A DNA stretch of 64,000 nt from Idiomarina sp. X4 (GTDB lineage Bacteria > Pseudomonadota > Gammaproteobacteria > Enterobacterales > Alteromonadaceae). Shown here piece after piece: positions 1,279-45,090 of the stretch. The stretch is from positions 2,418,001 through 2,482,000 of the forward strand of contig NZ_CP025000.1 in NCBI RefSeq assembly GCF_002808045.1, given 5' to 3'. The notes under the pieces were generated by a model that did not search any database, had not been told where the DNA came from, and saw nothing but the letters and a program-made list of their open reading frames with translations. Position numbers and translations under genes: made by a program. Each line of letters starts with the position of its first letter. Position 1 is the stretch's first letter.

Positions 1279-1384
1279 GGGTTTCTATTCTCCGAAATTT
1301 ACACTATTTTGCGAATCAAAGGTTGCTATGTTACCTCGGATTGGCGCAGACTCAAGTATAACCCCGTCAACAGAGAGAAAAATT

Positions 1385-3033: not shown

Positions 3034-3070
3034 AAAATACCCAGTTGTAAAGTTTGTATTCTTGTGTAAA

Positions 3071-3098: not shown

Positions 3099-3134
3099 AT
3101 GCGACATTAACTGTTCAAAACACGAGATTCTATT

Positions 3135-4172
3135 ATGCCAGCCATCCGAAACGACTGGACCGTTGACGAGGTTCAACAACTTCTACAATTGCCGTTTAAT
3201 GATCTAATGTTTAAAGCCCAGAGTGTTCACAGAGAACACTTTAGCCCGAATGAAGTACAGGTCAGTACGCTTCTGTCGATTAAAACCGGCGCGTGCCCGG
3301 AAGACTGCAAATACTGTCCGCAAAGTGCACATTATCACACCGGGCTTGATCGAGAGCGCCTCATGGCCGTTGAGAAAGTATTGCAAGAGGCGCAAGCGGC
3401 CAAAGACAAGGGAGCGAGCCGTTTTTGTATGGGCGCAGCCTGGCGTAACCCGAAAGACCGTGACATGCCTTACATTATGGAAATGATCAAAGGTGTTAAA
3501 GAGCTGGGGCTGGAGAGCTGCATGACGCTGGGGATGCTGTCTGCTGAACAGGCGAAATTGCTGCAACAGGCCGGGCTTGATTACTACAACCATAACCTCG
3601 ATACCTCGCCTGAGTTCTATGGTGACATTATTACCACTCGCACCTATCAGGATCGCATTGATACGCTGGCTAATGTTCGCGATGCGGGTATGAAAGTTTG
3701 TGCCGGTGGTATCGTCGGTATGGGCGAGAGCATAAAAGACAGGGCGTCATTGTTGGTACAGCTTGCTAACTTACCGAAGCACCCGGAAAGTGTGCCGATT
3801 AATATGTTGGTGAAAGTTGAAGGGACGCCATTTGCTAAACTCGAAGACTTAGATAACTTTGAGTTTGTGCGTACAGTGGCCGTAGCACGTATTCTCATGC
3901 CGCAATCGCATGTGCGCTTATCGGCTGGCCGCGAAGATATGAATGATGAGATGCAGGCGCTGTGCTTTTTGGCCGGGGCTAACTCGATATTTTATGGTGA
4001 AAAGCTACTGACAACGGCAAATCCGGAAGCCGACGCTGACCTCCGTTTATTTGAGCGTTTAGGTATAACACCGGAGCAAGCCGATGGCTATGATGACGAA
4101 GTGCATACCGCTGTCATTGAAGACGCCATTGCAGAGCAAGAGCAACCAGTTCGTTTCTACGACGCCTCCTAA
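3135..4172 (+). CDS. bioB: Biotin synthase (radical SAM)
   Basis: Inserts sulfur into dethiobiotin, the last step of biotin synthesis. The radical-SAM CxxxCxxC motif is at C54, C58 and C61 (ACPEDCKYC), and binds the 4Fe-4S cluster that cleaves SAM. Further family landmarks are [23 protein letters not shown], and the segment [10 protein letters not shown], whose arginine ligates the sacrificial 2Fe-2S cluster in E. coli. 345 residues, normal length. First gene of a tight bioBFCD run; bioF starts 11 bases after its stop. Confidence 0.98.
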
Positions 4173-4183
4173 GCGATCGAACA

Positions 4184-5320
4184 ATGCGTGACTCCCTTAA
4201 GGAGAAGTTGAAGCAACGCAGAGCGTCGACACAAATGCGTCGACGTCGTTGTCGTGCCGCAAAAGAAGCCAGTGTCGTTGTCGACTTTTCTAAAAACGAT
4301 TACCTCGGTTTAAGTCAGCATGAAGGGGTTGTTAAGCGCTTTACCGATGCAGCGAATCAATGGGGAGTTGGCAGTACAGGGTCGCCGTTATTAAGTGGTT
4401 ATTGTCGAGAGCACCAGCGACTTGAATCTGAGCTGTGTGAGTGGCTGGAAAAGCCCGCTGCGCTTTTGTTCTCCTCCGGTTTTGCGGCAAACACAGGTGT
4501 ATTAAATACCCTGACAGATGAAAGCGGTAAAATATACGCAGATAAGCTTGTTCATGCGTCTCTAATTGACGGTATCAAGCAAAGTCGCCAGCACTTTAAG
4601 CGCTATGCTCACAGTCAGCCGTTAACCATTGCTGGCATGCTGCAACCCGAAGACTGGATTGTCACCGAAGGGGTTTTCAGTATGGACGGGGACGACGGCG
4701 GTATTGCGCAATTAACCGAGCTGAAAAACCAACAGCCTGACGCCACATTCATGGTCGACGACGCGCACGGCATTGGTGTTTTAGGTCAAGAGGGGAAAGG
4801 CGCTCTGGCGGATAACTTGAACGTGATCGACGTCATGACTGGGACCTTTGGCAAAGCACTCGGCGTTGGTGGGGCGTTTGTCTGTGCTGATAACGACACT
4901 ATTGAAGCGTTAATTCAGTTTTGTCGGGAATACATCTATTCAACAGCCATGCCTCCCGCACAAGCTGCCGCTGCCAGCGCCGCACTAACGGTTATTCGCA
5001 GTAATGAAGGGCGAGAGAAGCGAGAGCATTTAGCACAGCTAGCGCAACAGTTTCAGCTGGAAATGTCTCGTCGTGGCTTAGCGTATATAAAGTCTTCAAC
5101 GCCTATTCAAACCTGGCTTTTTGAAAGTGAAGAGACAGCTCGACGCATTGCTAGAGAGCTGACGAGCCTGGGGTATTTGTGCCGAGCGATTGTTTATCCC
5201 ACTGTGCCTAAGCATTTACCAAGAATTCGCTTTAGCCTGAACAGTAATATGCAGTCAGCGCACATCAGTCAATTCTGGCATGTGGTTGATGAGCTACTGG
5301 AATCTAATAGGGCAGTATGA
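4184..5320 (+). CDS. bioF: 8-amino-7-oxononanoate synthase
   Basis: PLP-dependent alpha-oxoamine synthase that condenses pimeloyl-ACP/CoA with alanine to give KAPA. Visible landmarks: DFSKNDYLGLSQH near residue 35, GSTGSPLLSGY, the cofactor-contacting DDAHGIGVLG, and the Schiff-base lysine in TGTFGKALGVGGAF. 378 residues, slightly shorter than usual, with a very basic N-terminus (LKQRRASTQMRRRRCRAAK). The last four bases overlap the bioC start (ATGA), so the two are probably translationally coupled. Confidence 0.96.
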   Translation: MRDSLKEKLKQRRASTQMRRRRCRAAKEASVVVDFSKNDYLGLSQHEGVVKRFTDAANQWGVGSTGSPLLSGYCREHQRLESELCEWLEKPAALLFSSGFAANTGVLNTLTDESGKIYADKLVHASLIDGIKQSRQHFKRYAHSQPLTIAGMLQPEDWIVTEGVFSMDGDDGGIAQLTELKNQQPDATFMVDDAHGIGVLGQEGKGALADNLNVIDVMTGTFGKALGVGGAFVCADNDTIEALIQFCREYIYSTAMPPAQAAAASAALTVIRSNEGREKREHLAQLAQQFQLEMSRRGLAYIKSSTPIQTWLFESEETARRIARELTSLGYLCRAIVYPTVPKHLPRIRFSLNSNMQSAHISQFWHVVDELLESNRAV

Positions 5321-6096
5321 AACCGCTAAATTTTGATAAAGCTGTGGCGCAGCACTTTGATCGTGCCGCTATCAGTTATACTCAACACGATGAAATTCAA
5401 AGGAGAGCGGCGCACGATCTCTTGGCTTGCGCCAAGCCCGCTATTCCTCAAAGTACGGGAACACTGGTTGATATTGGTTGTGGTCCCGCAGCTGAGACCG
5501 CTACACTGCTAAGCCGCTGCCAGCATTATATCGGCATTGATATCTCCCCAGCCATGCTGGTACAAGCACGTCGTTTATACCCGGGCTTGAATTGGGCGCA
5601 TGGACACTGGACTGAGTTGCCATTAGCCAGTGCAAGTACCGATTGGGCATTTGCGAATTTATCATTGCAGTGGGTTGATGACTTGAGTTGTGCGTTTAAC
5701 GAGGTCTACCGTATTCTTAAGCCCGGTGGTGTTGCGACGGTTAATACGCTGTTACCCGGTACCTTCTCGTCGTTGCAGGAAAGCTGGGCGAGAGTCGATA
5801 GTCGCCCCCATATTAACCAGTTTCCGCTATTAACCGATGTTGTCTCTGCGGTTAAGAAACACGCTTGGTCAAGTGCCGGTTTTCATGACTACAGCTATAC
5901 CCAATATTTTAATAATTTGAGAGAACTGTTAGGCAGTATTAAAGGTGTTGGTGCAAGCTTAGTAAAACGGGAAAGCTCGTCTGGTTTGACGACGAGATCA
6001 AAGCTTCAAAACCTGGAAAAGAGCTATGAAATCTTTCGACAAAGCCAGGGGTTACCACTGGAATGGCAGATTATTAACATCGTTTTAGTTAAGTAG
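5317..6096 (+). CDS. bioC: Malonyl-ACP O-methyltransferase
   Basis: SAM-dependent methyltransferase that methylates malonyl-ACP so that fatty acid synthesis can build the pimeloyl chain of biotin. The SAM-binding motif I is LVDIGCGPAAETATLL (about residues 50-65), followed by the acidic loop IGIDISPAMLVQARR and the post-motif LSLQWVDD, typical of BioC. 259 residues. It overlaps bioF by four bases and precedes bioD by 18. The matching esterase (BioH or equivalent) is not in this window. Confidence 0.94.
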   Translation: MKPLNFDKAVAQHFDRAAISYTQHDEIQRRAAHDLLACAKPAIPQSTGTLVDIGCGPAAETATLLSRCQHYIGIDISPAMLVQARRLYPGLNWAHGHWTELPLASASTDWAFANLSLQWVDDLSCAFNEVYRILKPGGVATVNTLLPGTFSSLQESWARVDSRPHINQFPLLTDVVSAVKKHAWSSAGFHDYSYTQYFNNLRELLGSIKGVGASLVKRESSSGLTTRSKLQNLEKSYEIFRQSQGLPLEWQIINIVLVK

Positions 6097-6114
6097 GGTT
6101 GATTAATAGTTAAT

Positions 6115-6789
6115 ATGGACACTTATTTTATAACAGGTACCGATACTGACGCTGGTAAAACAGTGGCTGCCTGTGGCTTTGTGCAATACTTGGTAAGCAG
6201 TGGTCGCAACGTGGCTGTTATGAAGCCTGTTGCTTCTGGCTGCGAAATGCACGATGGGCAATTAAAAAATTCAGATGCTTTAGCATTAATGAATGTTGCG
6301 AATATTAAACAACCTTATGAACAGGTAAACCCTTACACTTTTGAGCCAGCCATAGCGCCTCATATTGCTGCTGCCGAAAAGGGCGTTGAAATCACCATCA
6401 ATAGGCTTCAAAAGACCGTTGATGAGATTCGCCAAACTGGTGCTGATGTTTTGGTGATAGAAGGTGCCGGTGGCTGGCAGTTACCGTTATCGAACACCTT
6501 CTTTATGCCAGAGTTGGTTGAGCAACTGTCCGCCAAAGTTATTCTCACGGTTGGTTTAAAGCTGGGCTGCTTAAATCATGCGTTACTTAGCGCTCTGTCA
6601 ATTCGAGCATCGGGCTGTGAACTGGCAGGCTGGGTTGCCGTACAGACCGGCGAAACGCCAATGCCCAGACAAGAAGAAAACCTTAAAACATTAATCCGGG
6701 TTCTGAAATCAGAGCCAATTGCCACACTGCCTTATATGCCTGACTGGCAAAGCCAAAATTTCGCCGGTAAATTTTCACTGGTGCATTGA
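6115..6789 (+). CDS. bioD: Dethiobiotin synthetase
   Basis: ATP-dependent carboxylase that closes the ureido ring of dethiobiotin from diaminononanoate and CO2. P-loop GTDTDAGKT at residues 8-16, with the family-typical TDAGKT; the substrate-site segment MKPVASG follows, then VIEGAGGWQLPL (acidic, Mg/ATP site). 224 residues, normal length. Last gene of the bioBFCD operon; after it comes a 57-bp gap to htpX without a clear hairpin-plus-T-run terminator. Confidence 0.96.
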   Translation: MDTYFITGTDTDAGKTVAACGFVQYLVSSGRNVAVMKPVASGCEMHDGQLKNSDALALMNVANIKQPYEQVNPYTFEPAIAPHIAAAEKGVEITINRLQKTVDEIRQTGADVLVIEGAGGWQLPLSNTFFMPELVEQLSAKVILTVGLKLGCLNHALLSALSIRASGCELAGWVAVQTGETPMPRQEENLKTLIRVLKSEPIATLPYMPDWQSQNFAGKFSLVH

Positions 6790-6846
6790 ACTTAATGTGA
6801 GGCGCCTACATATCAGTTAGCGTAGACATTCTTAACGGAGACTAGG

Positions 6847-7704
6847 ATGAAAAGGATCCTGCTATTTTTAGCCACTAACATTGCCGTTTTATTGGTTGTT
6901 AGTGTTGTTTTTAATATCGTTATTGCGGCAACGGGTATAGATGCCCGTGGCTCTGCAGGGTTATTAATTTTCTGTGCGCTGTTTGGTTTTGGTGGTGCTT
7001 TTGTTTCACTATGGATTTCCCGCTGGATGGCCATTCGTTCAACTGGAGCACGGGTTATCGAGCGTCCACAGAATCAGTCTGAAGAATGGCTGTTAAGAAC
7101 GGTTCAGCAGCAGGCGCAAAAAGCCGGCATACCGATGCCTCAGGTTGCTGTATATCAGTCACCGTCGCCAAATGCTTTTGCCACCGGACGCAGCAAAAAC
7201 CATTCACTGGTTGCGGTCAGCACCGGGCTGTTACAAAGCATGAACGCAGATGAAGTCGAAGCGGTGCTGGCGCACGAAGTCAGTCACATTGCTAACGGCG
7301 ATATGGTAACGCTGACGTTAGTTCAGGGCGTGGTGAATACCTTTGTGATGTTCTTTGCGCGGATCATCGCCAGCGCTATTGCACGCGGTGATAACCAACG
7401 TGGCGGACTCGCGTATTTCGGTTTGGTCATGTTGCTGGAAGTTGTTTTTGGCATTCTCGCCAGCGTGATAGTGATGTGGTTCTCCCGTCAGCGCGAGTTC
7501 CGAGCAGACGCTGGCTCAGCTGATATCGCGGGTAAACAGAAGATGATTGCGGCGTTGCGTCGTTTGCAACAAGGCCGCGAATCAGAACTGGACGGTACCA
7601 TGTTAGCTTTCGGCATTAAGGGAAAACGCTCGACGATTGGTAAACTCTTTATGAGTCATCCGCCTTTGGAAGAGCGCATTCATGCACTTGAGCAACGGCG
7701 TTAG
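6847..7704 (+). CDS. htpX: Membrane zinc metalloprotease HtpX
   Basis: M48 family inner-membrane protease involved in quality control of membrane proteins, acting alongside FtsH. Two N-terminal TM segments (about residues 4-27 and 38-58), the catalytic HEVSH at 143-147, further TM segments (about 155-178 and 195-215), then the third zinc-ligand region [14 protein letters not shown]. 285 residues, typical. GGAG lies 6 bases before the ATG. In E. coli htpX is stress-induced through CpxR; I did not find a convincing Cpx box here. Confidence 0.96.
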
Positions 7705-7775
7705 TCGTTGCTTTTCAATGGCGGACACCGTACATTCGTACATCTTATACAGTGAAAAAGTCGGAAGTTAACTTT

Positions 7776-9134
7776 ATGGCACAGTGGAGTGCGCGCAGCT
7801 GGCGCGATAAGCCAATTCAACAACAACCCAGCTACCAAAACGAACAACAGCTGCATGATGTCGAGAGGCAACTAAGCCAGTTCCCGCCGTTGGTGTTCGC
7901 GGAAGAAATCCGTGCGCTGAGAAATCAACTAAGCGATGTCTGTCAGGGAAACGGTTTTCTGCTCCAAGGCGGTGACTGCGCTGAGTCGTTTAGCGATTTT
8001 AATGCCCCAAAAATAAGAGACACTTTTAAAGTTATTCTGCAAATGGCCATTGTAATGACCTTTGCGGGTTCGTGTCCGGTGACCAAAGTAGCGCGAATGG
8101 CGGGGCAGTATGCTAAGCCACGCTCCAGTGACTTTGAGTCTGTTGACGGTGTTAACCTTCCAAGTTATCGCGGGGATATTATTAATGGCTCTGAGTTTAC
8201 AGAGAGTTCTCGAGAGCCGGATCCTGAGCGTATGCTTAAGGCGTATCATCATTCGGCGGCGACGTTGAATTTGTTGCGGGCGTTTGCACAGGGTGGTTTG
8301 GCAAACTTACATAAGGTTCATAAGTGGAACTTAAGCTTCATTGCATCAAACCCGTTGAAAGAACGCTATCAGCAAATCGCGGAAGAAATTCAGTCAGCGC
8401 TGCGTTTTATGGAAGTATTGGGCATCAATGCAGATAATAATGCGACCATCCACGAAACTTCGCTGTTTACCTCTCATGAGGCCTTGTTGTTGCCATATGA
8501 GCAAGCGTTAACTCGTACAGATACACTAACCGGCTTACCTTACGACTGTTCTGCCCATATGGTTTGGATAGGGGAGCGTACGCGGCAGTTAGACCATGCG
8601 CATGTCGAATTTATGCGCGGCATCAATAACCCGATAGGCGTAAAAGTCGGGCCGAAAATGCCTGAAGACGAGCTTATTCGTTTAATCGATGCCCTTAATC
8701 CGGATAACGAAGCCGGGCGATTAACGCTTATTACGCGTATGGGAGCAGATAATCTGGCTGAAAATATGCCACGTCTGGTACGTCGAGTAAAAGAAGAAGG
8801 TCGCAACGTTATTTGGTCCAGCGATCCAATGCACGGCAACACTATAAAAGCGGATAATGGCTTGAAAACACGTTCTTTCGACGCCATTCATAAAGAGTTG
8901 AGACAGTTTTTCGCCATTCACCAGTCAGAAGGTACATATCCTGGCGGCATCCATTTAGAAATGACCGGGGAAGACGTTACAGAATGTACAGGTGGAGCTT
9001 ATAAAATCAGCGAAGAAGATCTGTCGAGTCGTTACCGTACACAGTGCGATCCACGACTTAATGCCGATCAAGTGTTAGAATTGGCGTTTCTAGTGGCCGA
9101 GTCGCTTAAAGCAGCGCGCAATGGCGAAGGCTAA
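7776..9134 (+). CDS. Class II (plant-type) DAHP synthase
   Basis: Condenses phosphoenolpyruvate and erythrose 4-phosphate to DAHP, the first shikimate-pathway step. The family is shown by [15 protein letters not shown] at the N-terminus, [10 protein letters not shown] (metal-ligand Cys), [47 protein letters not shown] and [15 protein letters not shown]. 452 residues from the ATG at 7776, preceded by GGAAG; a GTG at 7752 would add 8 residues without a ribosome site. This is the type found in plants, mycobacteria and Pseudomonas, not the AroF/G/H type of E. coli. It lies near ppsR/ppsA, the place held by aroH in E. coli. Confidence 0.94.
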
Positions 9135-9173
9135 TTTTCTATTTCATTGAACGTATAAGAGGACAACCGTTGT

Positions 9174-9971
9174 ATGTCACAGCAGGTAGAGCAGTTATTT
9201 GAGAATTTGTGGCAAGATTACTTATCTCGCACGCCGTCGGCAGAAAAAGTTCACAAAATACTGGGTGAAGGGCATCCGATCATTAATGATCACGTTGCCT
9301 TCAGAACATTCGATATTGCTCCGGTTGGCTTAGAAGTTCTGGCTCAGCACTTTCTGGACTTAGGTTACAAAGAAGGCGGCGATTACCATTTCGAGGCTAA
9401 AAAGCTTCGTGCGAAACACTTTGAGCATGATGACCCTGAGCTGCCTAAAGTGTTCATCAGCGAATTAATGACAAGCGAGTTTTCTGACGAGTTGCAAGCC
9501 AAAGTCAAAGAAATGGTGGCGCAAGTATCGGAAGCCGATACGAAAAAGTCTGACTTTCTGTACTCAGGCACCCATTGGAAAGTTAGCCATGAAGATTACC
9601 TGGCGCTGCTGGAAGAAAGTGAATACGCTGCATGGATGTCGGCGTTCGGTTACTGCGCTAACCACTTTACGGTGAGTGTTAATCAGTTGCCGGGCTACGA
9701 ATCATTAGAGCAGGTAAACCAGAAGCTGAAAGACAATGGCTTTACACTCAATAGTTCAGGTGGCGAAATTAAAGGCTCGCCAGAGGTTTATCTAGAGCAG
9801 TCATCAACAATGGCTGACCGTCATGACGTTGAGTTCTCAGACAAAACGGTCAGTATTCCAAGCTGTTTTTATGAGTTCGCAAAGCGGTACGAGATTGAGC
9901 CAGGTGAACTTTACACAGGTTTTGTTGCGGCTTCTGCAGACAAAATCTTTGAAAGTACTAACGCAAAATAA
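9174..9971 (+). CDS. DUF1338 family protein (possible 2-oxoacid dioxygenase fold)
   Basis: A 265-residue cytoplasmic protein of the DUF1338 family. Sequence landmarks are NDHVAFRTFD (about residues 38-47), HFEAKKLRAKHFEHDD, GTHWKVSHEDY and NHFTVSVNQLPGY; the conserved His residues fit a vicinal-oxygen-chelate-like metal site. Longer DUF1338 members (HglS, YdcJ) are Fe(II) enzymes that convert 2-oxoadipate to D-2-hydroxyglutarate. This is the short form and its substrate is not established. A ribosome site (AGAGGA) precedes the ATG. It converges with ppsR across a shared hairpin. Family assignment is good; activity is inference. Confidence 0.8.
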   Translation: MSQQVEQLFENLWQDYLSRTPSAEKVHKILGEGHPIINDHVAFRTFDIAPVGLEVLAQHFLDLGYKEGGDYHFEAKKLRAKHFEHDDPELPKVFISELMTSEFSDELQAKVKEMVAQVSEADTKKSDFLYSGTHWKVSHEDYLALLEESEYAAWMSAFGYCANHFTVSVNQLPGYESLEQVNQKLKDNGFTLNSSGGEIKGSPEVYLEQSSTMADRHDVEFSDKTVSIPSCFYEFAKRYEIEPGELYTGFVAASADKIFESTNAK

Positions 9972-9982
9972 GCGTTAATAAC

Positions 9983-10010
9983 AGAACGGCACTAATAGCG
10001 GTGCCGTTCT
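9983..10010. terminator. Convergent hairpin between DUF1338 gene and ppsR
   Basis: A perfect 10-bp stem (AGAACGGCAC at 9983-9992 with GTGCCGTTCT at 10001-10010) and an 8-base loop lie exactly where two convergent genes end; the ppsR stop codon sits in it. No long T-run follows on either strand, so it may act as a weak or bidirectional terminator. Confidence 0.55.
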
Positions 10011-10801
10011 AAGTTGGTCTTCGCAAGAATCTTCGCGGCAATTTCTTCCACTGAATAATGGGTTGAATTGATAAAAGGTATCGCTTCGCGGCGATACAGT
10101 TTTTCGACTTCAGCCAACTCAAAACGACACTGTGCTAACGACGCATAACGGCTGCCTTCTCTGCGTTGACTGCGTATTTCATGCAGGCGCTGAGAACTGA
10201 GCGTGAGACCAAAAATCTTATGCCTGTGCATTTTAAGTTCTTTGGGTAACTGCAAACGTTCAAAATCATCGTCGTCGGTAAGCGGATAGTTGGCTACCTT
10301 AATACCGTATTGCATGGCCAAATATAGGCTGGTCGGCGTTTTACCCGTTCTTGAAACGCCTACCAAAATAAGATCTGCCTTATCAAGCTGGTTAAGGCGC
10401 TTACCGTCGTCGTTATCAAGGGCGTAGTTAATTGCATCAATACGGAAGTTATAATTTTTATGAACACCGTGAGTCCGATGCGTTTTCGGCTCCGCTTTAA
10501 CGTTGAGCTCTTTCTCTACCGGTGTCACAAAGTGATCGAGGAAGTCATAGCAAACGCCCCCGCAATTCGTTATTTTTGACTTTAGCGTTTCATTAACGAA
10601 GGTATGGAATATCAGCGGCGGCTCGCCACTCTCTTCTTTTGCCTTTTGAATGGTTTTACAGACATTTTCTGCTTTTTTTTGTGTATCAATAAAGGGCAGC
10701 GTTTTATGCTCGAATTTTACAGGAAACATTGAGAGCAGGGCATGACCAAAGGCCTCAGCGGTCAGTGCCGTGCCGTCAGAAATATAAAAGGCGTAGCGCA
10801 C
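9992..10801 (-). CDS. ppsR: PEP synthase regulatory kinase/phosphorylase
   Basis: Bifunctional DUF299 enzyme that inactivates phosphoenolpyruvate synthase by ADP-dependent phosphorylation of an active-site threonine and reactivates it by phosphorolysis. Family features: the N-terminal [18 protein letters not shown], and a P-loop GVSRTGKT at residues 148-155 followed by [11 protein letters not shown]. 269 residues, normal length. It is divergent from its target gene ppsA with a gap of about 110 bp, the same pairing as in E. coli. Confidence 0.95.
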
Positions 10802-10838
10802 GGTAAGTCTCTTTTACAAAGGATTAATACAGCGATAT

Positions 10839-10866
10839 TAACTTGTTGAGCTATAAAGTGTAAAAT
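10839..10866 (+). promoter_or_regulatory. Possible ppsA promoter
   Basis: TTAACT (10839-10844), a 16-base spacer, and TAAAAT (10861-10866) form a plausible sigma70 promoter in the ppsR/ppsA divergent gap. If used, transcription would start near 10873. That leaves only about 7 bases before the ATG at 10880 and so favours the downstream GTG at 10910 as the ppsA start. Confidence 0.35.
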
Positions 10867-10909
10867 ACCCGGCACTTCCATGCCTAAAAAATTAATTGAG
10901 GACTGTGAC

Positions 10910-13276
10910 GTGCAAGAATACGTAGTGTGGTACCAAGATCTGGGAATGCAGGACGTTAATCGTGTGGGGGGCAAAAACGCCTCTCTGGGTGAAATGATTA
11001 GCAACTTATCCGGTGCTGGAGTAGAAGTTCCCGGAGGTTTTGCGACCACAGCCGAAGCTTATAACCAGTTTTTGGAGCAAAGTGGTCTTAACGATCGCAT
11101 TCACGATTTGCTCGACAGCCTCGATGTCGATGATGTTCAAGCACTGACGCAAGCTGGTCAAAAAATTCGTCAGTGGATAATCGACACGCCATTCCAGCCT
11201 GAATTCGAACAGGCCATTAAATCTGCGTTTGAAACGCTTAGTGAAAACAACGACGAGTTCAGTTTCGCTGTGCGCAGTTCCGCAACGGCCGAAGATATGC
11301 CGGATGCATCATTTGCCGGGCAACAGGAAACTTTCCTGAACGTTCGTGGTTTAGACAATGTGATGGAGGCAATCAAGCATGTTTTCGCCTCTTTATTTAA
11401 TGACCGAGCTATTTCTTATCGGGTTCACCAAGGCTACGATCACCGCGGCGTTGCGTTATCGGCTGGCATTCAACGAATGGTGCGCAGCGATATTTCATCG
11501 TCAGGCGTTATGTTCAGTATCGATACTGAGTCAGGTTTCGAAGATGTTGTCTTCATTACCTCGTCTTTTGGACTGGGTGAAATGGTCGTGCAAGGCGCTG
11601 TCAACCCGGATGAATTTTACGTTCATAAACCAACGTTAGAAGCAGGGCGTCCGTCGGTATTACGACGCACGTTGGGCAGTAAGAAAATCCAGATGATTTT
11701 CTCAGAAGACCGCGCGCACGGTAAGCAGACATTAATTGAAGACATCGACGTAGAGAAAAGCCGCACGTTCTCAATTACTGACGACGAAGTAGAAGCACTA
11801 GCGAAACAAGCACTAATTATTGAGAAGCACTACGGTCGTCCAATGGATATTGAATGGGCGAAGGATGGTGTTGATGGCAAGCTCTATATTGTTCAGGCAC
11901 GTCCTGAAACGGTGCAGTCAAACCAGAAAGGTCAGGCTATAGAGCGCTTCGCTCTGAAAAGTAAAAGTGACGTAGTATGCCAGGGACGTGCTATCGGTCA
12001 GCGTATTGGCCGAGGTGTTGCGCGTGTTCTTAATGACATTAGTGAAATGGATAAAGTGCAGCCGGGCGATGTGCTGGTAACAGACATGACGGATCCTGAC
12101 TGGGAACCTATTATGAAGCGCGCCGCTGCCATTGTGACTAACCGAGGTGGCCGGACTTGCCACGCTGCTATTATCGCACGTGAACTGGGCATTCCTGCGG
12201 TTGTCGGTTGTGGTGATGCCACTGACCATATTGCTAATGGCCAGGAAGTGACTGTTTCTTGCGCTGAGGGCGATACTGGATATATCTATCAAGGACAACT
12301 TGATTTCGATGTCACCGAGTCTCGCATTGATGCGATGCCGCCGTTGCCGCTGAAAATTATGATGAACGTAGGTAACCCGGATCGCGCGTTTGATTTTGCT
12401 GGCTTGCCTCATGCTGGTATTGGCCTGGCACGCTTAGAGTTCATTATTAACCGCATGATAGGCGTGCACCCGAAAGCGCTATTAAATTACGATGCACAAA
12501 GTGATGACTTAAAAGCGACTATCGATCAAATGATGGCGGGTTATAGCAGCCCTCGTGAGTATTACGTTGCGCGTTTGGCTGAAGGTATTGCGACACTGGG
12601 CGCGGCTTTCTCACCAGAGCGAGTCATTGTTCGCATGTCTGACTTTAAGTCAAACGAATACGCGAACCTTATTGGTGGTAGTCAATATGAGCCGGGTGAA
12701 GAGAACCCTATGCTCGGCTTCCGTGGCGCTTCACGCTATATCTCAGAAGAATTCCGTGACTGCTTTGCGTTAGAGTGTGAAGCCATTAAACGGGTTCGTA
12801 ATGACATGGGGCTCACGAACGTCGAAATTATGATTCCGTTCGTGCGTACTTTAGAAGAAGGCCGGAAAGTTATCGAGCTTCTGGAAGAGCAGGGTTTAAA
12901 ACAAGGCGAAAATGGGCTGCGCGTCATTATGATGTGCGAGTTGCCGTCGAATGCCCTGTTAGCCGATGAGTTCCTCGATATCTTTGACGGTTTCTCTATT
13001 GGTTCTAACGACTTAACTCAGCTAACCTTAGGGCTTGACCGCGATTCGGGTGTTATTGCACACTTATTTGATGAGCGTAATGAAGCCGTTAAGAAGTTGC
13101 TGGCAATGGCAATTCAAACGGCTAAGAAGCGTGGTAAATACGTTGGTATTTGTGGCCAGGGACCATCGGATCATCCGGATTTTGCCGCTTGGTTGGTTGA
13201 GCAGGGCATTGACTCTGTGTCGCTGAATCCTGACACCGTTATTGAAACCTGGATGTACCTGTCGGAACACCTATAA
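10910..13276 (+). CDS. ppsA: Phosphoenolpyruvate synthase
   Basis: Makes PEP from pyruvate and ATP during growth on three-carbon acids or amino acids. Domains in order: N-terminal ATP-grasp nucleotide-binding domain ([25 protein letters not shown]), central phosphohistidine domain with the catalytic His in [15 protein letters not shown], and C-terminal PEP/pyruvate TIM barrel ([33 protein letters not shown]). The threonine next to the catalytic His is the expected PpsR target. I chose the GTG at 10910 because TGAGGA lies 6 bases before it; the ATG at 10880 has no ribosome site and would add 10 residues. ydiJ follows its stop by 2 bases. Confidence 0.95.
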
Positions 13277-40065: not shown

Positions 40066-40977
40066 ATGAGCCTGCCAAGTATTGCCAATTACTATTTGTT
40101 CGCCCGCACAGTGCGCTCTGGCAGTATTAATGCCGCCGCACGTGAGCTAGAGCTTCCTAAATCGACCATTAGCCGACGACTGAATCAATTGGAAAAAGAG
40201 CAGGGCGTTCGACTGGTGAATAGGGGGCGTTCAGGGTTAAAGCTTACCGATGTTGGTGAAGCTTTTTTAGTACACTGCGAAGCATTAGTTGACGCTGCAG
40301 AATCGGCACAGATGGTAACACAGGCACTGTTAGAAAAGCCCAGAGGTCGTGTAAATATCAGTTGTCCGTATGCAATAAGCCAAAGCTTACTGGTTAAAGT
40401 ATTGCCTGAGTTCATGGATAGATACCCCGAAGTCCAGCTTAATGTAATTGCAACGAACCGGCCCGTTAACCTCATTGATGAGAATGTCGACATAGCGCTT
40501 AGGGTACGTCCTTATATTGAAGACTCTTCGTTAATCGCCAGGCCGTTAACGGAGTCGCCATCGAGTTTATTTATTTCACCCGAGCGGTTACAAGCACAGC
40601 CAGTTGAGGTGCCTCAAGATTTAACAAAGCACCCGCAACTCAGTTTGCATTACACCAGCGGGCGTTACCATTACCAACTAACTAATGAGCAAGGCGACAA
40701 GCAGCAAATTAATTTCCAGCCGAAGCTTATTAGCGATGACATGATGCTATTAAAGGAAGCCGCCATCAATCGCCAGGGAATTGTCGCCTTGCCAAATTAC
40801 ATAGGGCAGCAAGCGGTATCTGAAGGGCTGCTTGTACAGTTGCTACCAAACTGGAACTTACCGGTTGGTATTATGCACATGACATATTCACATCGCCGTG
40901 GACTTAAACCTGCGGTAAGAACCTTAATAGATTTTCTTGCTGAGAAACTTCCCGAAGTAGCGGAACACACGTTTTAA
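40066..40977 (+). CDS. LysR-family transcriptional regulator
   Basis: 303-residue LTTR. N-terminal winged HTH (residues 3-60: FARTVRSGSINAAARELELPKSTISRRLNQLEKEQGVRL), then an effector-binding periplasmic-binding-protein-like domain (about 90-295: GRVNISCPYAISQSLLVKVLPEF; FISPERLQ; LKEAAINRQGIVALPNY). The subfamily (DNA-binding pattern KSTISRRL) often controls a divergent quinone reductase or azoreductase. The 107-bp gap to azoR holds GTTCC-type repeats that could be its operator. Last host gene before dif. Confidence 0.93.
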   Translation: MSLPSIANYYLFARTVRSGSINAAARELELPKSTISRRLNQLEKEQGVRLVNRGRSGLKLTDVGEAFLVHCEALVDAAESAQMVTQALLEKPRGRVNISCPYAISQSLLVKVLPEFMDRYPEVQLNVIATNRPVNLIDENVDIALRVRPYIEDSSLIARPLTESPSSLFISPERLQAQPVEVPQDLTKHPQLSLHYTSGRYHYQLTNEQGDKQQINFQPKLISDDMMLLKEAAINRQGIVALPNYIGQQAVSEGLLVQLLPNWNLPVGIMHMTYSHRRGLKPAVRTLIDFLAEKLPEVAEHTF

Positions 40978-41017: not shown

Positions 41018-41045
41018 ATTTAACATAATATACATTATACGCAAT
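41018..41045. other. dif: dif site (XerC/XerD resolution site), left copy
   Basis: On the plus strand the XerD arm ATTTAACATAA (41018-41028) matches the E. coli dif arm in all 11 positions, the 6-bp centre TATACA (41029-41034) is identical, and the XerC arm TTATACGCAAT (41035-41045) matches 8 of 11. This is the bacterial chromosome-dimer resolution site and marks the replication terminus. Because the XerC arm on its right probably comes from the inserted element, this is the copy with both arms good, hence the likely functional one. Confidence 0.88.
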
Positions 41046-41156
41046 GATGATTTAGACGATATTTAACCCATATATTTGAACTTAAAAATGCGTGTAATTG
41101 GTCAAGAAATGGATTAGCGACGTCCACCAGAAAAACTGGTTAGCGGATATAGAAAA

Positions 41157-41185
41157 CCCCCGCAGGTTCGGCAAAACCTCGGGGG
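41157..41185 (+). other. GC-rich stem-loop, candidate replication origin structure
   Basis: CCCCCGcAGGTT (41157-41168) pairs with AACCTCGGGGG (41175-41185) over 11 bp with one bulged C and a CGGCAA loop. No T-run follows, so it is not a typical terminator. Its place upstream of a rolling-circle initiator gene fits a double- or single-strand origin or a packaging signal; which one is unknown. Confidence 0.5.
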
Positions 41186-41253
41186 CGCGGTCACCTAGAA
41201 ACCTTTGTGTTGAACTCGCAGGTGACGTATTTAATGTACTACAAAAACGTTGC

Positions 41254-41273
41254 CTGCTCCAGAAATGGAGCAG
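41254..41273 (+). promoter_or_regulatory. Hairpin sequestering the rep ribosome-binding site
   Basis: CTGCTCC (41254-41260) pairs perfectly with GGAGCAG (41267-41273) over a 6-base loop. The right arm contains GGAG, the only Shine-Dalgarno for the rep ATG at 41277. Folding would block initiation, a way to keep initiator levels low. Confidence 0.6.
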
Positions 41274-41276
41274 ATT

Positions 41277-42095
41277 ATGTGTGCGGAATCTAACGCTTAT
41301 TCGGGAGCCGAATCAGTAGTTAGAGAATCTGAGCGAAGCGATGATTCTCTTCCTTGTCTTAATAAGAACAACTCAATCGAGAGTTTACCTTCTAACGTCA
41401 AAAAACAGGTCTTTGCGTTGACTCTTAATACTGAATATTTCATAGATACATACGGCTTAAATTCAGTTGGTTTTTTAACGTTAACTTTTAAAGAGCCGAT
41501 AGATAAGCCTAAAGAAGCCAATCGGCGATTTAACTCTTTTTCATCTAACTTTCTTCGAAAACATACATTGTCCTGGATAAAAGTTCAGGAACGTCACTTG
41601 TCCGGTCGCATTCATTTTCATTTATTAATTGCTGTAGAAAATGACATCAGAACGGGCTTTGATTTTGATGCTGTCAGAAAGCGTAACTATTCGTCTGTAT
41701 CTCCAGAGTTAAAAGGATTGTGGAAGCTGTTTAGAGAGAACTGTCCTAAGTATGGGTTTGGTCGCCACCAACTTGAACCGATTCGCTCTACAGCCGAAGG
41801 AATGGCGAAGTACCTTTCAAAATATCTCACTAAGGATATGGGGAAACGCTACCCTAACGATAAAGGAGCTAGGTTGGTTTCATACGGCAAGTGCTCACGA
41901 ATCGCTAGTAGTCGTTTCTCTTGGGTGTCAGAAGGTGCAAGGCTTTTTAGAATGAAGTTAGCATTCTTCGTTCACTCAATTGCTGAGGATTTAGGGGTCG
42001 AGCCTTCCTTTAAAAGCATGAAAAATGCTTTAGGTGATAAATGGATGAGAAACCATAGACATAGAATTATGGATATAGAGTTGGTGGACTCATAA
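41277..42095 (+). CDS. Rolling-circle replication initiator (HUH endonuclease)
   Basis: 272-residue protein with the three motifs of the HUH Rep superfamily: motif 1 FLTLTF (residues 66-71), motif 2 RIHFHLLIAV with the metal-binding His pair H113/H115, and motif 3 AKYLSKYLTK with two tyrosines Y179 and Y183 spaced as in phiX174 gpA. It should nick the element's origin, attach through tyrosine and drive rolling-circle replication. It is comparable to the Cri-type initiators of dif-integrating satellites. Start chosen at ATG 41277 with GGAG 6 bases before; a TTG frame from 41250 lacks support. Its TAA shares one base with the next ATG. I cannot name the exact family without a search. Confidence 0.85.
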   Translation: MCAESNAYSGAESVVRESERSDDSLPCLNKNNSIESLPSNVKKQVFALTLNTEYFIDTYGLNSVGFLTLTFKEPIDKPKEANRRFNSFSSNFLRKHTLSWIKVQERHLSGRIHFHLLIAVENDIRTGFDFDAVRKRNYSSVSPELKGLWKLFRENCPKYGFGRHQLEPIRSTAEGMAKYLSKYLTKDMGKRYPNDKGARLVSYGKCSRIASSRFSWVSEGARLFRMKLAFFVHSIAEDLGVEPSFKSMKNALGDKWMRNHRHRIMDIELVDS

Positions 42096-42508
42096 TGATT
42101 GAGTTTAAAGACTTCCGTACCCTACTCGTTCATATTTACTCATTTAACTACAAGAAAGCCGCTAAGGATTTAGGGGTTTCTGTCACTACTATTTACCGAT
42201 GGTATGACAATAACAGAGCCCCTACTCACGTCGTTAAATATTTGATGGTTGTCGCACGTGGTTACTTGCCCGATAGAGAACCATATATACGATGGTATAT
42301 AGATGGTGATTACATCAATACTCCCTATGGTCGCTTTCTCGCAGCTGAGATTGAGTTTCTAAATCACTACAAATGGTCAGCAAGGCGTTATGCAGACATA
42401 GCGAAAAACCGAAGAGAAAGGATTCCAGACATTGAAAATAGACTTCAGAGTATAGCTGAGGAGGTGTCTGGCATGCTCTCTTTAATCAAGTCCAATAAGG
42501 TTGGTTAG
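42095..42508 (+). CDS. HTH protein coupled to the replication initiator
   Basis: 137 residues. An N-terminal helix-turn-helix (about residues 17-40: YKKAAKDLGVSVTTIYRWYDNNRAP) is followed by REPYIRWYIDGDYINTPYGRFLAAEIEFL, a W-x-x-G-x-x-x-x-TP-x-GR pattern that recalls DUF3653-type proteins of Vibrio filamentous phages, and a C-terminal coiled-coil-like helix (RERIPDIENRLQSIAEEVSGML). The TAATG junction with rep implies translational coupling. Probably a DNA-binding regulator or replication helper of the element; the DUF3653 likeness is tentative. Confidence 0.72.
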   Translation: MIEFKDFRTLLVHIYSFNYKKAAKDLGVSVTTIYRWYDNNRAPTHVVKYLMVVARGYLPDREPYIRWYIDGDYINTPYGRFLAAEIEFLNHYKWSARRYADIAKNRRERIPDIENRLQSIAEEVSGMLSLIKSNKVG

Positions 42509-42566
42509 CGACAAGCAAGCAGACAGGATGGCGGGTTGATTGGCGCTAACCATTGGAAAGACATTT

Positions 42567-42779
42567 TTACCCGCTCTCCTCTAATTTTTTATCACATTTA
42601 GTGCAGACAGGTCGTTTCTTACCGTCAAACTCCCACCAGTAACGGTTTTGCTTCATAGAGCTAAAAGGCTTTCCACAAACATAGCAGCTATTTAAGTCGG
42701 AACTGCTGTAATAGACAATGGATCCAATTACAACGAAAGCACCGATTATAATAGTCAGGATTAATTCCACATTTTCCAT
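42567..42779 (-). CDS. Membrane-anchored zinc-ribbon miniprotein of the dif element
   Basis: 70 residues, opposite strand to rep. A single N-terminal TM helix (about residues 6-24) followed by a zinc-ribbon-like domain with C32-x2-C35 and C59-x2-C62 (SCYVCGKPF and PVCTKCDKKL), and a YWWEFDGKK segment between. A very good ribosome site (AAGGAG, 7-base spacing) shows it is a real gene. The ribbon would face the cytoplasm or periplasm depending on topology. I do not recognise a named family. It could be an accessory (host-interaction, exclusion or export) gene of the element. Confidence 0.72.
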   Translation of the reverse strand: MENVELILTIIIGAFVVIGSIVYYSSSDLNSCYVCGKPFSSMKQNRYWWEFDGKKRPVCTKCDKKLEESG

Positions 42780-42878
42780 GATGCAGCTCCTTAAAGTGAC
42801 ATATTGTCAAAGTATAGCCTTTTGGTTTTGAGAGCAAAGAGAGGATTTCCCCGATTTATGGATGATTATAGGGGGTTA

Positions 42879-42898
42879 TTAGGGGGTTAGCCCCCTAA
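42879..42898. other. Perfect 8-bp stem-loop, origin-like
   Basis: TTAGGGGG (42879-42886) and CCCCCTAA (42891-42898) enclose a TTAG loop. A second, unpaired ATAGGGGG copy lies just before it. No T-run on either strand, so a terminator is unlikely; the small tetraloop hairpin is the shape of a rolling-circle nick site or single-strand origin. Confidence 0.45.
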
Positions 42899-42925
42899 TG
42901 GGTGACAAAATGACAACAAGCCTAA

Positions 42926-43057
42926 ACTTATAGAATTAAAGTTTCGGTTCGACCTAGATCTTCTTAAAAGCCTTGTACCACGCCCTGCTAGACAAAAAAA
43001 TCGGATATGATAATCTTAACTTGACCGTGTGTCGCAATGTCTCTTAATTCTATAAGT
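42926..43057. repeat. 14-bp inverted repeat pair next to the right att site
   Basis: ACTTATAGAATTAA (42926-42939) and its exact complement-inverse TTAATTCTATAAGT (43044-43057) are separated by 104 bases; the right copy ends 1 base before the degenerate XerD arm. In single-stranded DNA they would fold back, recalling the folded attP of CTX-phi. They could also be regulator sites. Confidence 0.6.
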
Positions 43058-43058
43058 G

Positions 43059-43086
43059 TCTGATTTAAATATACATTATACGCAAT
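43059..43086. other. Right attachment site of the dif element, degenerate dif
   Basis: Centre TATACA (43070-43075) and XerC arm TTATACGCAAT (43076-43086) are identical to the left dif, but the XerD arm (43059-43069, TCTGATTTAAA) matches the E. coli arm in only about five positions. This asymmetry is what TLC-phi attachment sites show, where XerC binding is kept and the XerD site is poor. Confidence 0.75.
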
Positions 43087-43126
43087 TATGTAGTATTAGG
43101 TTTTAACGCCCAAATCATCGGTTACT

Positions 43127-43144
43127 CCAGAATTCTGGTATCAT
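43127..43144 (+). promoter_or_regulatory. lonH promoter region with a 12-bp palindrome
   Basis: The perfect palindrome CCAGAATTCTGG (43127-43138) abuts a -10-like TATCAT (43139-43144), 29 bases before the lonH ATG. A repressor bound there would overlap the promoter spacer. No matching -35 of quality is seen. Confidence 0.35.
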
Positions 43145-43173
43145 GCGCTCATAGATAATTAAGAGATAATTTT

Positions 43174-45090
43174 ATGAAGTTAGAACACCTGGCGTTGCAG
43201 CCAGATATTGATAGCTGGTTGCAAAGCTTCCCGGCAAACTTAACCGAGAATCCGTTAGTTGGTCAGTCTCGCGCAACTAAGGCGTTTGATGATGCGCTGC
43301 AGCAACGTGGCACGTATTCGAATATCTATGCGCTGTTTTCGCCTGGTATTTTAAAACGTGATGCGCTTAACGCGTATTTTAGTGAGCACCAATGGGAACA
43401 CTCCAGTTGGTTCGACTGGGTCTATATGGCAAACCCAAACGATGCGCTACGACCAATTGCGGTTAATATTCCGTCGGGTTCGGCTGAGGCTTTTTTAGAG
43501 GCTGTGTGGGCTTTTATTAATTTACCAAAAGACCAACGCGAAACGGCCTATAAAGAAATCACCCAAGCTTATGACACGCACAAGCTCCGGGACTATATGC
43601 AGCAAGTACGTAATGTGTCTCCTGAAGAGATACAAGGTGAACAACTGGCCAGTATTTTAGTGGCGCATAAGCACCCTGCTCCTTATTACTACTGCGACAG
43701 AGTCACAGAAGAGCGTCTGTTTGGTCATATTGGCGTTCAGGCAATTGAAGGAACCGTTCGTTCTGAGTTGCACTTGATAGAGCCAGGCCTTATTCACAAG
43801 GCGAATGGCGGCGTGCTGGCCATTGAGGTTGCTGAGCTATTGGAAGATATTAAGCTTTGGAAGCGCCTGAAAAACGTCATTGAGAGCGGTGAATTAGACT
43901 GGTCAACACCCAAACCGGATTCCGGCACTGCTTTTTTCTACCGTCCAGAGCCGGTTCCGGTTAATTTGAAAGTCATTTTACTGGGCTCTCGTAACGAATA
44001 CGCTCAATTACGCGAATACGACGAAGACTTTGATCATTTCTTTCCGTTTCTGGCAGACTTTCATGGTCATTACGCTACGCAAAATGACCCCGTGGCACCC
44101 TACTTTGATTACCTGAATTACGTTTGGCAAATTGCTGACGTGTTGCCGTTAAATCAAAGTGGTTATGCTGGGTTATTAAAAGTGTGTGCTCGATACACCG
44201 ATTACCAGCAAGAACTCACGCTTAATTCTGTTCGCTTGTTGCAGGTATTAAGGGAGGCCAACAGTTGTGCATTAGAGCGTCAACAAACAGAGATTGATAA
44301 GCAAGCCATTGACGATGCGTTGCAGCAGCAGCGTGACCGCGAAGGTAACTTAGCGGAACTGAGTCGCCGCAGTATTCTTGAGCAACAAGTTAGAATAGAT
44401 ACCCACGGCGAAGCTATTGGCCAGCTTAATGGTCTGACCGTTGTCACTATGGGTGGCAGCGAATTTGGGGAACCGTCCCGGATTACCGCCACTATTCACT
44501 ATGGCGACGGCGATATTATTGATATCGAACGCAAATCGGATTTGTCAGGAAATATTCACACTAAAGGTGTGATGATTCTAAGCGCTTATTTAGCCAACCA
44601 ATTCGCGCGTTACGCCCCGCTGTCGGTGTCAGCCACGGTTGTATTTGAACAGTCTTACTACGAAGTTGACGGTGACAGCGCGTCTTTAGGTGAGCTGTGC
44701 TGCTTAATGTCTGCATTAGCTAATATTCCTCTGAAACAGTCTTTAGCAATAACTGGCGCTGTCGATCAGTTTGGTAACGTGCAGTCTATTGGCGCGGTTA
44801 ATGAAAAAATTGAAGGTTATTATGCACTGTGTAAAGAGCGCGGTTTTAACGGCGATCAAGGTGTTATTATTCCAGTCTCCAATAAGCACCAATTGAACTT
44901 GAACGAAGAAGTTATCGACGCGGTAAAACACGGAAACTTCCATATCTATGCCGTTGCTCACGTTGAGGAAGCGTTAGAGATACTCTCTTCCTGTAGAGCG
45001 GATGATTTTTTCCAGAAAGTGAAAGAAAACACCTTGGAAGATGATGCGTCAGATCAACCTATTGGCTTTTGGCGTCGACTTTTTTCATAA
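43174..45090 (+). CDS. lonH: Lon-like protease LonH (YcbZ family)
   Basis: 638-residue S16 Lon-type serine protease homolog. The C-terminal proteolytic domain is clear: the catalytic serine lies in EVDGDSASLGELCCLMSA and the lysine in GAVNEKIEGYYALC, giving the Ser-Lys dyad. The N-terminal part (LVGQSRATKAFDDAL) resembles an AAA-related module, but I see no G-x4-GKS/T Walker A motif, so ATP use is doubtful; HKANGGVLAIEVAELLED is the Walker B-like region. Located just before fabA, as ycbZ is in E. coli, with 89 bp between them. Confidence 0.9.
   Translation: MKLEHLALQPDIDSWLQSFPANLTENPLVGQSRATKAFDDALQQRGTYSNIYALFSPGILKRDALNAYFSEHQWEHSSWFDWVYMANPNDALRPIAVNIPSGSAEAFLEAVWAFINLPKDQRETAYKEITQAYDTHKLRDYMQQVRNVSPEEIQGEQLASILVAHKHPAPYYYCDRVTEERLFGHIGVQAIEGTVRSELHLIEPGLIHKANGGVLAIEVAELLEDIKLWKRLKNVIESGELDWSTPKPDSGTAFFYRPEPVPVNLKVILLGSRNEYAQLREYDEDFDHFFPFLADFHGHYATQNDPVAPYFDYLNYVWQIADVLPLNQSGYAGLLKVCARYTDYQQELTLNSVRLLQVLREANSCALERQQTEIDKQAIDDALQQQRDREGNLAELSRRSILEQQVRIDTHGEAIGQLNGLTVVTMGGSEFGEPSRITATIHYGDGDIIDIERKSDLSGNIHTKGVMILSAYLANQFARYAPLSVSATVVFEQSYYEVDGDSASLGELCCLMSALANIPLKQSLAITGAVDQFGNVQSIGAVNEKIEGYYALCKERGFNGDQGVIIPVSNKHQLNLNEEVIDAVKHGNFHIYAVAHVEEALEILSSCRADDFFQKVKENTLEDDASDQPIGFWRRLFS

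What the first reader, a model, noticed from the sequence alone, without database searches (positions are those of the whole stretch)
41018..43086. A minimal 2-kb rolling-circle element inserted in the chromosomal dif site by host XerCD
A near-perfect dif lies at 41018-41045, and a 19-bp exact repeat of its centre and XerC arm recurs 2041 bp later beside a degenerate XerD arm. The DNA between codes for an HUH initiator, an HTH protein and a zinc-ribbon miniprotein, and no recombinase. Known IMEX (CTX-phi, VGJ-phi, TLC-phi) integrate this way; TLC-phi has the same good-XerC/poor-XerD asymmetry. At 2 kb, with no coat or export gene, this would be among the smallest such elements and must depend on a helper for any horizontal movement. 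I do not know of this element being described.
Basis: partly seen in the sequence, partly recalled or inferred. Interest (0 to 1): 0.92.

Follow-up and report, generated by a model that had tools for sequence, protein, structure and literature searches.

The report
Two-kilobase satellite integrated at chromosomal dif
A marine Idiomarina chromosome carries a 2,041-bp selfish element, with essentially two key genes, sitting exactly in the site where the cell untangles its chromosome; it looks like a phage satellite that borrows the host's recombinase by bringing its own activator of that enzyme.

Summary
Confirmed and extended. A dif site (41018-41045) and a half-dif (43059-43086) bound a 2,041-bp insert. 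The centre and XerC arm match 17/17; the right XerD arm matches 4/11. Empty sites exist: in G200 (LonB 99% identical) the window's flanks are contiguous, and dif-to-lonB is 104 bp in both. Three other Idiomarina genomes carry relatives at dif. One (MD25a) is a head-to-tail tandem that displays the predicted attP junction. Rep is 87% identical between hosts whose LonB is 54% identical, so the element moves between species. (1) The HTH protein is a distant relative of XafT, the TLC-phi XerD activator. Its profile hits 8 of 19 Idiomarina genomes, each time at dif, and one copy sits in a 7.3-kb filamentous phage at dif. (2) Rep belongs to the Arp family of 'phasyl' mini-plasmids and shares with some of them a two-hairpin module showing compensatory changes. 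Best reading: a phasyl-type rolling-circle satellite turned into a TLC-phi-like IMEX. It replicates by Rep, integrates and excises by host XerCD with its own Xaf-like activator, and depends on a filamentous helper for spread. The window's genome has no zot hit, hence no resident helper of that kind. XerD activation, excision and packaging are inferred, not shown.

The parts
41018..41045 (.). left site = complete dif: XerD arm 41018-41028, centre TATACA 41029-41034, XerC arm 41035-41045
   Evidence: (identical to I. loihiensis dif; dif found in 19 of 19 Idiomarina genomes)
43059..43086 (.). right site (attR): degenerate XerD arm 43059-43069 (7 of 11 mismatched), intact centre 43070-43075 and XerC arm 43076-43086
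41046..43069 (.). inserted element (unit 2041 bp with one att)
   Evidence: absent from G200 where the flanks are contiguous; related units at dif in G202, G203, G188
41157..41185 (+). conserved hairpin I (CCCCC...CGGCAAA...GGGGG), candidate replication origin or packaging signal
   Evidence: shared with some E. coli/Salmonella/Citrobacter phasyl plasmids (5 of 11 fetched), with compensatory changes
41190..41226 (+). conserved hairpin II (GTCACCT...AGGTGAC), just upstream of rep
41250..42095 (+). rep: HUH rolling-circle initiator of the phasyl Arp family (PF23343); start uncertain (TTG 41250, ATG 41265 or ATG 41277)
42095..42508 (+). HTH protein, XafT-like (distant VC1465/DUF3653 family), predicted activator of XerD; start codon overlaps the rep stop (TAATG)
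42502..42552 (.). inverted repeat TGGTTAGCG...CGCTAACCA at the end of the HTH gene
42567..42779 (-). accessory ORF, 70 aa: one membrane segment plus Cys-pair zinc-ribbon-like part (by eye; no Pfam family over cut-off); dispensable
   Evidence: present in G188 (69% aa), absent in G202 and G203
42878..42899 (.). hairpin ATTAGGGGG-TTAG-CCCCCTAAT, recognisable in all three relatives (imperfect in G188)
42966..42999 (.). conserved non-coding block GCCTTGTACCACGCCCTGCTAGACAAAAA beside attR
   Evidence: a 24-base piece has no exact match in viral contigs
40066..40977 (+). flanking host gene: LysR-type regulator
43174..45090 (+). flanking host gene: lonB-type protease, 104 bp from the attR centre as from dif in empty relatives

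Best explanation
The insert is a dif-targeting satellite of the IMEX kind. SHOWN BY SEQUENCE: a 2,041-bp unit inserted exactly at dif, leaving a complete dif on the left and a poor-XerD/good-XerC half site on the right; empty sites in relatives; related units at dif in other species, one of them in tandem; an Arp/phasyl-type rolling-circle Rep with a hairpin module shared with some phasyl plasmids; a XafT-like HTH protein whose start overlaps the rep stop. INFERRED: Rep nicks an origin and makes circular copies; the circle carries attP (degenerate XerD arm, dif-like centre and XerC arm); the HTH protein, coupled to rep, activates host XerD (as XafT does for TLC-phi) so that XerCD recombine attP with dif without FtsK, reversibly, restoring a working dif on one side; with no coat or export gene, spread between cells relies on a filamentous helper phage. 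A plausible helper type exists in the genus: a filamentous phage at dif with the same kind of HTH gene.
For: Empty site with a join inside dif and the same 104-bp dif-lonB spacing. Relatives at dif in 3 other genomes. Tandem attP junction in MD25a: 160 of 160 bp beyond attR equal the element's own start. Horizontal movement: Rep 87% against LonB 54% identity to G202 and G203, while the nearest hosts by LonB (99, 94, 93%) lack the element. The HTH profile hits 8 of 19 Idiomarina genomes, all 8 at dif. Best NCBIfam family is 'VC1465 family Xer recombination activation factor' (2.6e-5, sub-cutoff). Profile-profile match to DUF3653/VC1465-like proteins, probability 99.2, E 1.9e-19. XerD and XerC genes present in the genome. 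Right-hand sites in 6 of 6 bounded Idiomarina elements have centre+XerC 17/17 and XerD arms with 5-7 mismatches of 11 (random mean 8.0). A comparable asymmetry occurs in 10 of 21 HTH-bearing viral loci examined. Rep-phasyl link and hairpins.
Against: No read data, so no circle or excision was seen. The window's own genome has no zot hit, so no resident helper of that kind. The VC1465 match is under its curated cut-off (24 bits against 70), DUF3653 is under cut-off (16.3 against 22.4), and the NCBIfam model also gives weak hits in 92 of 295 genomes at E<=1e-3, none over cut-off. The AlphaFold/Foldseek test did not decide. No helper-type origin was recognised in the window element (score at background). 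Hairpin I was not found in 6 of 11 phasyl-family plasmids nor in 7 of 7 phage contigs with this Rep. Arp-family Reps were not found outside the own genome in samples of 394 and 369 genomes. 11 of 21 HTH-bearing viral loci did not show the degenerate right-hand site.
Confidence: 0.8

Rival explanations
1. Xer-integrated element, but the HTH protein is only a regulator (e.g. of rep); integration is XerC-first as in VGJ-phi, needing no activator.
For: VC1465-family similarity is remote and sub-cutoff; an HTH downstream of rep could be autoregulatory; the XerC arm and centre are the intact parts.
Against: Of the window element's genes, the HTH is the only one shared with the otherwise different dif occupants: a filamentous phage with a different Rep, and a rep-less 1,442-bp element. 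All 8 copies in the 19 genomes are at dif. Profile match to the XafT-like family. The XerD arm is degenerate, as TLC-phi attP is described (PMC4246890, passages).
Confidence: 0.2
2. An immobile, decaying remnant of an old integration, kept by chance.
For: No zot-type helper in this genome; such elements do decay: G188 has an internally deleted rep, G152 an HTH gene without a recognised right att, G132 a truncated HTH.
Against: rep and HTH are intact; the non-coding stretch 41106-41285 is 92-95% identical to G202, against 72-85% in most 60-bp coding bins (one is 97%, one 65%); copies in hosts with strongly diverged lonB; tandem copy in MD25a.
Confidence: 0.1
3. A free phasyl-like plasmid captured once at dif by chance similarity or homologous recombination, not a dif-adapted element.
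For: Rep belongs to a plasmid family; five members scanned lack any dif-like site (best 11-13 mismatches of 28).
Against: Four Idiomarina genomes share the same att architecture and HTH linkage at the same position; the tandem junction shows att belongs to the unit.
Confidence: 0.03

Closest known systems
TLC-phi satellite phage of Vibrio cholerae (with XafT)
   Same: Integrates at dif; good centre and XerC arm, degenerate XerD arm; own replication gene; no coat genes; XafT-like HTH protein. TLC-phi facts from PMC4246890 passages; XafT from one sentence in PMC9765430 and the NCBIfam model name; the XafT paper itself was not held.
   Different: Rep is PF23343/Arp, with no PF05144 hit (that TLC-phi's Cri is PF05144 is recalled); 2.0 kb (1.82 kb in relatives), smaller than TLC-phi (recalled about 5 kb); Idiomarina host; HTH only remotely related to the VC1465 family.
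Phasyl mini-replicons of enterobacteria (protein Arp)
   Same: Rep about 45% identical over about 90%; two hairpins upstream of rep shared with some of them; similar size (the complete-looking records are 1.28-2.3 kb). That phasyl is a phage-plasmid hybrid packaged by filamentous phage is recalled; no paper in the library holds the word.
   Different: The plasmids are free circles; five scanned have no dif-like site and none of the phasyl records was among the 5 plasmid records with an HTH match. This element is chromosomal at dif.
dif-integrated filamentous phages (CTX-phi, VGJ-phi; here the G028 Idiomarina phage)
   Same: Host Xer machinery, dif site, no own integrase; tandem arrays described for dif phages (PMC7307601, passage).
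   Different: They encode coat, assembly and adsorption proteins; this element has none.
RS1 satellite of CTX-phi
   Same: Small satellite that needs a helper's capsid (recalled).
   Different: RS1 shares its helper's replication module (recalled); this Rep is of a different Pfam family from that of the Idiomarina phage.

Membership tests
IMEX (integrative mobile element exploiting Xer) | inserted at the host dif site with a dif-like att carried by the element | tested here: met
IMEX (integrative mobile element exploiting Xer) | no recombinase of its own; host XerC and XerD present | tested here: met
   no integrase among the element's four ORFs scanned; XerD 369.8 over cut-off 329.6; XerC 333.4 against 335.15, best family
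IMEX (integrative mobile element exploiting Xer) | integration/excision depends on XerCD | not testable with these tools
   needs mutants or an in vitro assay
TLC-phi-like IMEX | intact centre and XerC arm, degenerate XerD arm in att | tested here: met
   6 of 6 bounded Idiomarina elements, XerD arm 5-7 of 11 mismatches
TLC-phi-like IMEX | encodes a Xer activation factor (VC1465/XafT family) | tested here: inconclusive
   best NCBIfam family but sub-cutoff; hhalign probability 99.2 to XafT-like proteins; activity untested
TLC-phi-like IMEX | Cri-type (PF05144) replication protein (that TLC-phi has it is recalled) | tested here: not met
   PF23343 instead, no PF05144 hit at E<=0.1
Phasyl (Arp) replicon | Arp-family HUH Rep | tested here: met
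   about 45% identity over about 90%
Phasyl (Arp) replicon | origin-proximal structures shared with phasyl plasmids | tested here: met
   hairpin I in 5 of 11 fetched plasmids; in 6 aligned sequences 4 of 17 pairs with changes on both sides, 1 broken in two. Role as origin unproven
Phasyl (Arp) replicon | exists as a free small circular plasmid | not testable with these tools
   no reads; only integrated copies seen
Filamentous-phage satellite | carries a helper-recognised origin or packaging signal | tested here: inconclusive
   the G028-type site is in G104 and in some phasyls but not in the window element; conserved right-end hairpins of unknown role

The most novel reading that the evidence does not exclude
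Idiomarina dif is home to a ladder of Xer-exploiting elements that share one small Xaf-like protein and little else: a 7.3-kb filamentous phage, 1.8-2.0-kb two-gene phasyl-type satellites that replicate themselves, and a 1.44-kb element with no Rep at all that carries only the Xaf-like gene and the helper's putative replication origin. The Xaf-like gene plus att would then be a portable dif-integration module, and the two-gene satellite among the smallest autonomous integrating elements known.
Probability: 0.55. Interest if true: 0.72.

Novelty: new variant of a known kind. Interest (0 to 1): 0.62.

Why it matters
It shows how little an integrating element may need: an initiator, a recombinase activator and half a dif. 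It ties two things known apart (phasyl-type mini-replicons and Xaf-dependent dif integration) into one 2-kb unit, and it offers a natural system in a marine bacterium for testing how XerD is switched on without FtsK.

Tried and rejected
Window Rep and HTH against annotated phages: HTH none; Rep two weak partial hits. The G028 HTH against phages: two partial Vibrio phage hits. Rep in IMG/VR with a narrow alignment: none; a wider alignment gave 7 phage contigs with an Arp-type Rep, six with a Zot-like assembly ORF by eye. PDB sequence search with HTH and Rep profiles: nothing useful. AlphaFold model of HTH: N-terminal HTH good, overall pLDDT 70.7, pTM 0.42; Foldseek gave no match at E<=0.001, so fold evidence does not decide. 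Rfam over the locus: no match. Conserved right-end block in viral contigs and right end in phages: no match. Element nucleotide search in plasmids: only a 79-98 bp rep segment in 6 phasyl records. The G104 62-bp site in annotated phages: only two hits at E 8. Surveys for the Arp Rep in 394 order and 369 class genomes: only the own genome. I considered that the right repeat could be chance: rejected.

In the dif-lonB interval counts four genomes are left unresolved: G072, G196, G204 and G205 (no lonB hit within the 12 kb fetched beyond dif in G205). G198 is called empty only because its 311-bp spacing equals the attR-lonB spacing of G203.

Full report
OBSERVATION. The window lies in a single-contig 2,616,716-bp genome at 2418001-2482000. 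That it is Idiomarina follows from the named hits and the dif match. A 28-bp dif is at 41018-41045, identical to the published I. loihiensis dif (PMC2731167, passage). The 17-bp centre plus XerC arm recurs once, at 43070, 2041 bp away; no other place in 64 kb has 1-4 mismatches. The right-hand XerD arm has 7 of 11 mismatches. The cumulative GC skew of the window turns from rising to falling (highest between about 16 and 28 kb, falling steadily after 44 kb), consistent with a terminus, though coarse.

EMPTY SITES. dif is found in 19 of 19 Idiomarina genomes. From the dif centre to the lonB start is 104 bp in G199, G200 and G206, 96 in G201 and 113 in G197. From the attR centre to lonB in the window is also 104 bp (43070 to 43174). 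In G200 (LonB 99.06% identical) the window's left flank (74 bp, 89%) and right flank (1433 bp, 95%) align to contiguous DNA, overlapping by 23 bp in dif; further left, G200 differs. So 5 of 19 are clearly empty, and G198 probably so (311 bp, equal to the attR-lonB spacing of G203). Six of 19 have a second, right-hand att: the window, G188, G202, G203, G028 and G104. G152 has an HTH gene beside dif without a recognised right att, G132 a truncated HTH. G171 has no HTH or Rep hit but other inserted DNA. G072, G196, G204 and G205 were not resolved.

RELATIVES AND MOVEMENT. Rep hits are in 4 of 19 genomes, all at dif: the window, G202 (Idiomarina sp. MD25a), G203 (a MAG) and G188 (I. ramblicola, rep internally deleted). 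Units are 2041, 1823, 1826 and 1812 bp. Rep is 87% identical between the window and G202 or G203, while LonB is 53.6-53.8% and LysR 65%. The nearest hosts by LonB (99, 94 and 93%) lack the element. This discordance indicates horizontal movement. In MD25a the contig continues from attR into the element's own start for 160 bp, all 160 identical, and ends; another contig starts in the element's end and runs through attR to lonB. That is a tandem array, and the internal junction is the predicted attP. In the family-wide sample 2 of 196 genomes had Rep.

THE HTH PROTEIN. Its best NCBIfam family is NF040522, 'VC1465 family Xer recombination activation factor' (E 2.6e-5, 24 bits, under the cut-off of 70). 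The same family is the best hit for the three other Idiomarina HTH proteins scanned (E 0.006-0.018), but it is not hit by the Pseudoalteromonas one. DUF3653 is weak (16.3 bits against 22.4). A profile of 7 such proteins (A1) against 11 DUF3653/VC1465-like proteins (A3, Vibrio where named) gives probability 99.2 and E 1.9e-19 over 76 columns with a shared RGYLP...TP.G motif; A3 members are themselves under the NF040522 cut-off where scanned (28 and 45 bits). Searched over 19 Idiomarina genomes, A1 hits 8, all 8 at dif, and none elsewhere. Caution: NF040522 gives weak hits in 92 of 295 genomes of the order, none over cut-off, so the family score alone is weak. Of the 30 loci of that search that I scanned, 4 lie beside a dif with 1-5 mismatches (L106, L110, L116, L119), 26 do not. 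That XafT activates XerD for an IMEX of V. cholerae is one sentence in PMC9765430; the original paper was not held and is otherwise recalled.

A FILAMENTOUS PHAGE AT THE SAME SITE. In G028 the dif-attR interval is 7263 bp and encodes PF05144+PF05155 Rep, a G5P-like protein, a DUF2523 protein and a Zot-type assembly protein, with the HTH gene next to attR. It is the only zot hit in 19 genomes. HTH relatives in IMG/VR are in 20 loci, 15 of them on contigs of 7.8-9.9 kb. Of these plus a Pseudoalteromonas record (21 loci), 10 have a Zot-like hit to the two Zot proteins tried; 10 show, downstream of HTH, a site with an intact centre and the start of the XerC arm but a 4-6 mismatch XerD arm; 7 show only a complete dif-like site and 4 none (the patterns were built by hand from these loci). 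In the Pseudoalteromonas record the HTH gene follows zot.

REP. 528 homologs at E<=1e-3 (best 120 listed). After the 86-98% set, the nearest are two clusters at 54% (organism not named), then enterobacterial proteins at 45-47% over about 90%, several named 'phasyl DNA replicon protein arp'. In plasmid records there are 26 with a match, 22 covering at least 80%, records of 0.7-2.3 kb. Just upstream of rep, two hairpins (41157-41185 and 41190-41226) are conserved among the 4 Idiomarina elements and phasyls of E. coli, Citrobacter and Salmonella. Over 6 sequences, 4 of 17 pairs changed on both sides while staying paired and 1 pair is broken in two; these are few independent lineages. A pattern for hairpin I was found in 5 of 11 fetched phasyl-family plasmids, one of them with a shorter stem, and in 0 of 7 phage contigs. 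Whether this is the origin, a packaging signal or a leader is open. Five plasmids scanned have no dif-like site.

MECHANISM. rep stop and HTH start overlap (TAATG here; ATGA in G203, same letters in G202), suggesting coupled expression of replication and integration functions. Inferred cycle: Rep makes circles; attP meets dif; XerCD recombine with HTH-activated XerD; a full dif is restored at the left, so dimer resolution survives; reversal excises. TLC-phi integration is described as XerD-first, without FtsK and reversible, with a degenerate XerD arm and a helper for assembly (PMC4246890, passages). XerD and XerC genes are present. No coat gene is present, so horizontal transfer by a filamentous helper is the economical inference; no zot-type helper is in this genome.

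SIDE RESULT. The 1442-bp G104 element has HTH and att but no rep. It shares a 62-bp site (87%) with the G028 phage. That site scores 52 against shuffled maxima of 24-29 in three phasyl plasmids (E. coli 1464, Citrobacter 1465 and 1455) and 54 against 28 in another HTH-bearing viral contig (L130); weakly (27 against 25) in a fourth plasmid; and at background in five other plasmids, in two further HTH-bearing phage loci, in the G152 and G171 intervals, and in the window, G202 and G188 elements. An exact-pattern scan of IMG/VR gave 2 contigs, both with a Rep resembling the G028 one by eye, in L169 just before that gene. It may be the helper's plus-strand origin, which would make G104 a Rep-less satellite.

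NOVELTY. IMEX, TLC-phi and phasyl are known. I found no report of this element or of phasyl-type Rep at dif in the open-access library; most subscription papers are not in it, and a close relative is already annotated in databases as 'rolling circle replication-associated protein'. Verdict: new variant of a known kind.

Noticed in passing
L083 (G104) 4025-5451: 1,442-bp dif element with the Xaf-like HTH, a 55-aa ORF and no rep; carries a 62-bp site shared with the G028 filamentous phage and some phasyl plasmids, possibly the helper's replication origin.
   Followed up: partly
L082 (G028, reverse complement) 4012-11275: 7.3-kb filamentous phage at Idiomarina dif with PF05144 Rep, Zot-type assembly protein and the Xaf-like gene next to attR.
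   Followed up: partly
   Followed up: no
L074 (G200) 65-3365, left of dif: ORFs that look by eye like Tn7-family transposition genes end about 0.6 kb left of dif, where the window has the LysR gene.
   Followed up: no
L086, L132, L135, L142, L143, L147: HTH-bearing viral loci carry a divergent dif, ATTTAACATAA-CGTAAT-TTATGGGC, in a Pseudoalteromonas secondary replicon and in IMG/VR contigs.
   Followed up: partly
L106, L119: VC1465-like proteins next to a near-perfect dif, beside short ORFs that by eye look like those of tailless (corticovirus-like) phages; tailless dif prophages may also use Xaf-type factors.
   Followed up: no
L156-L160, L162: IMG/VR contigs (5.7-25 kb) with a Zot-like ORF by eye use an Arp-family Rep, so Arp is shared by phages and mini-plasmids.
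   Followed up: partly
window 30111 and 30372: A 17-bp exact direct repeat unrelated to dif.
   Followed up: no
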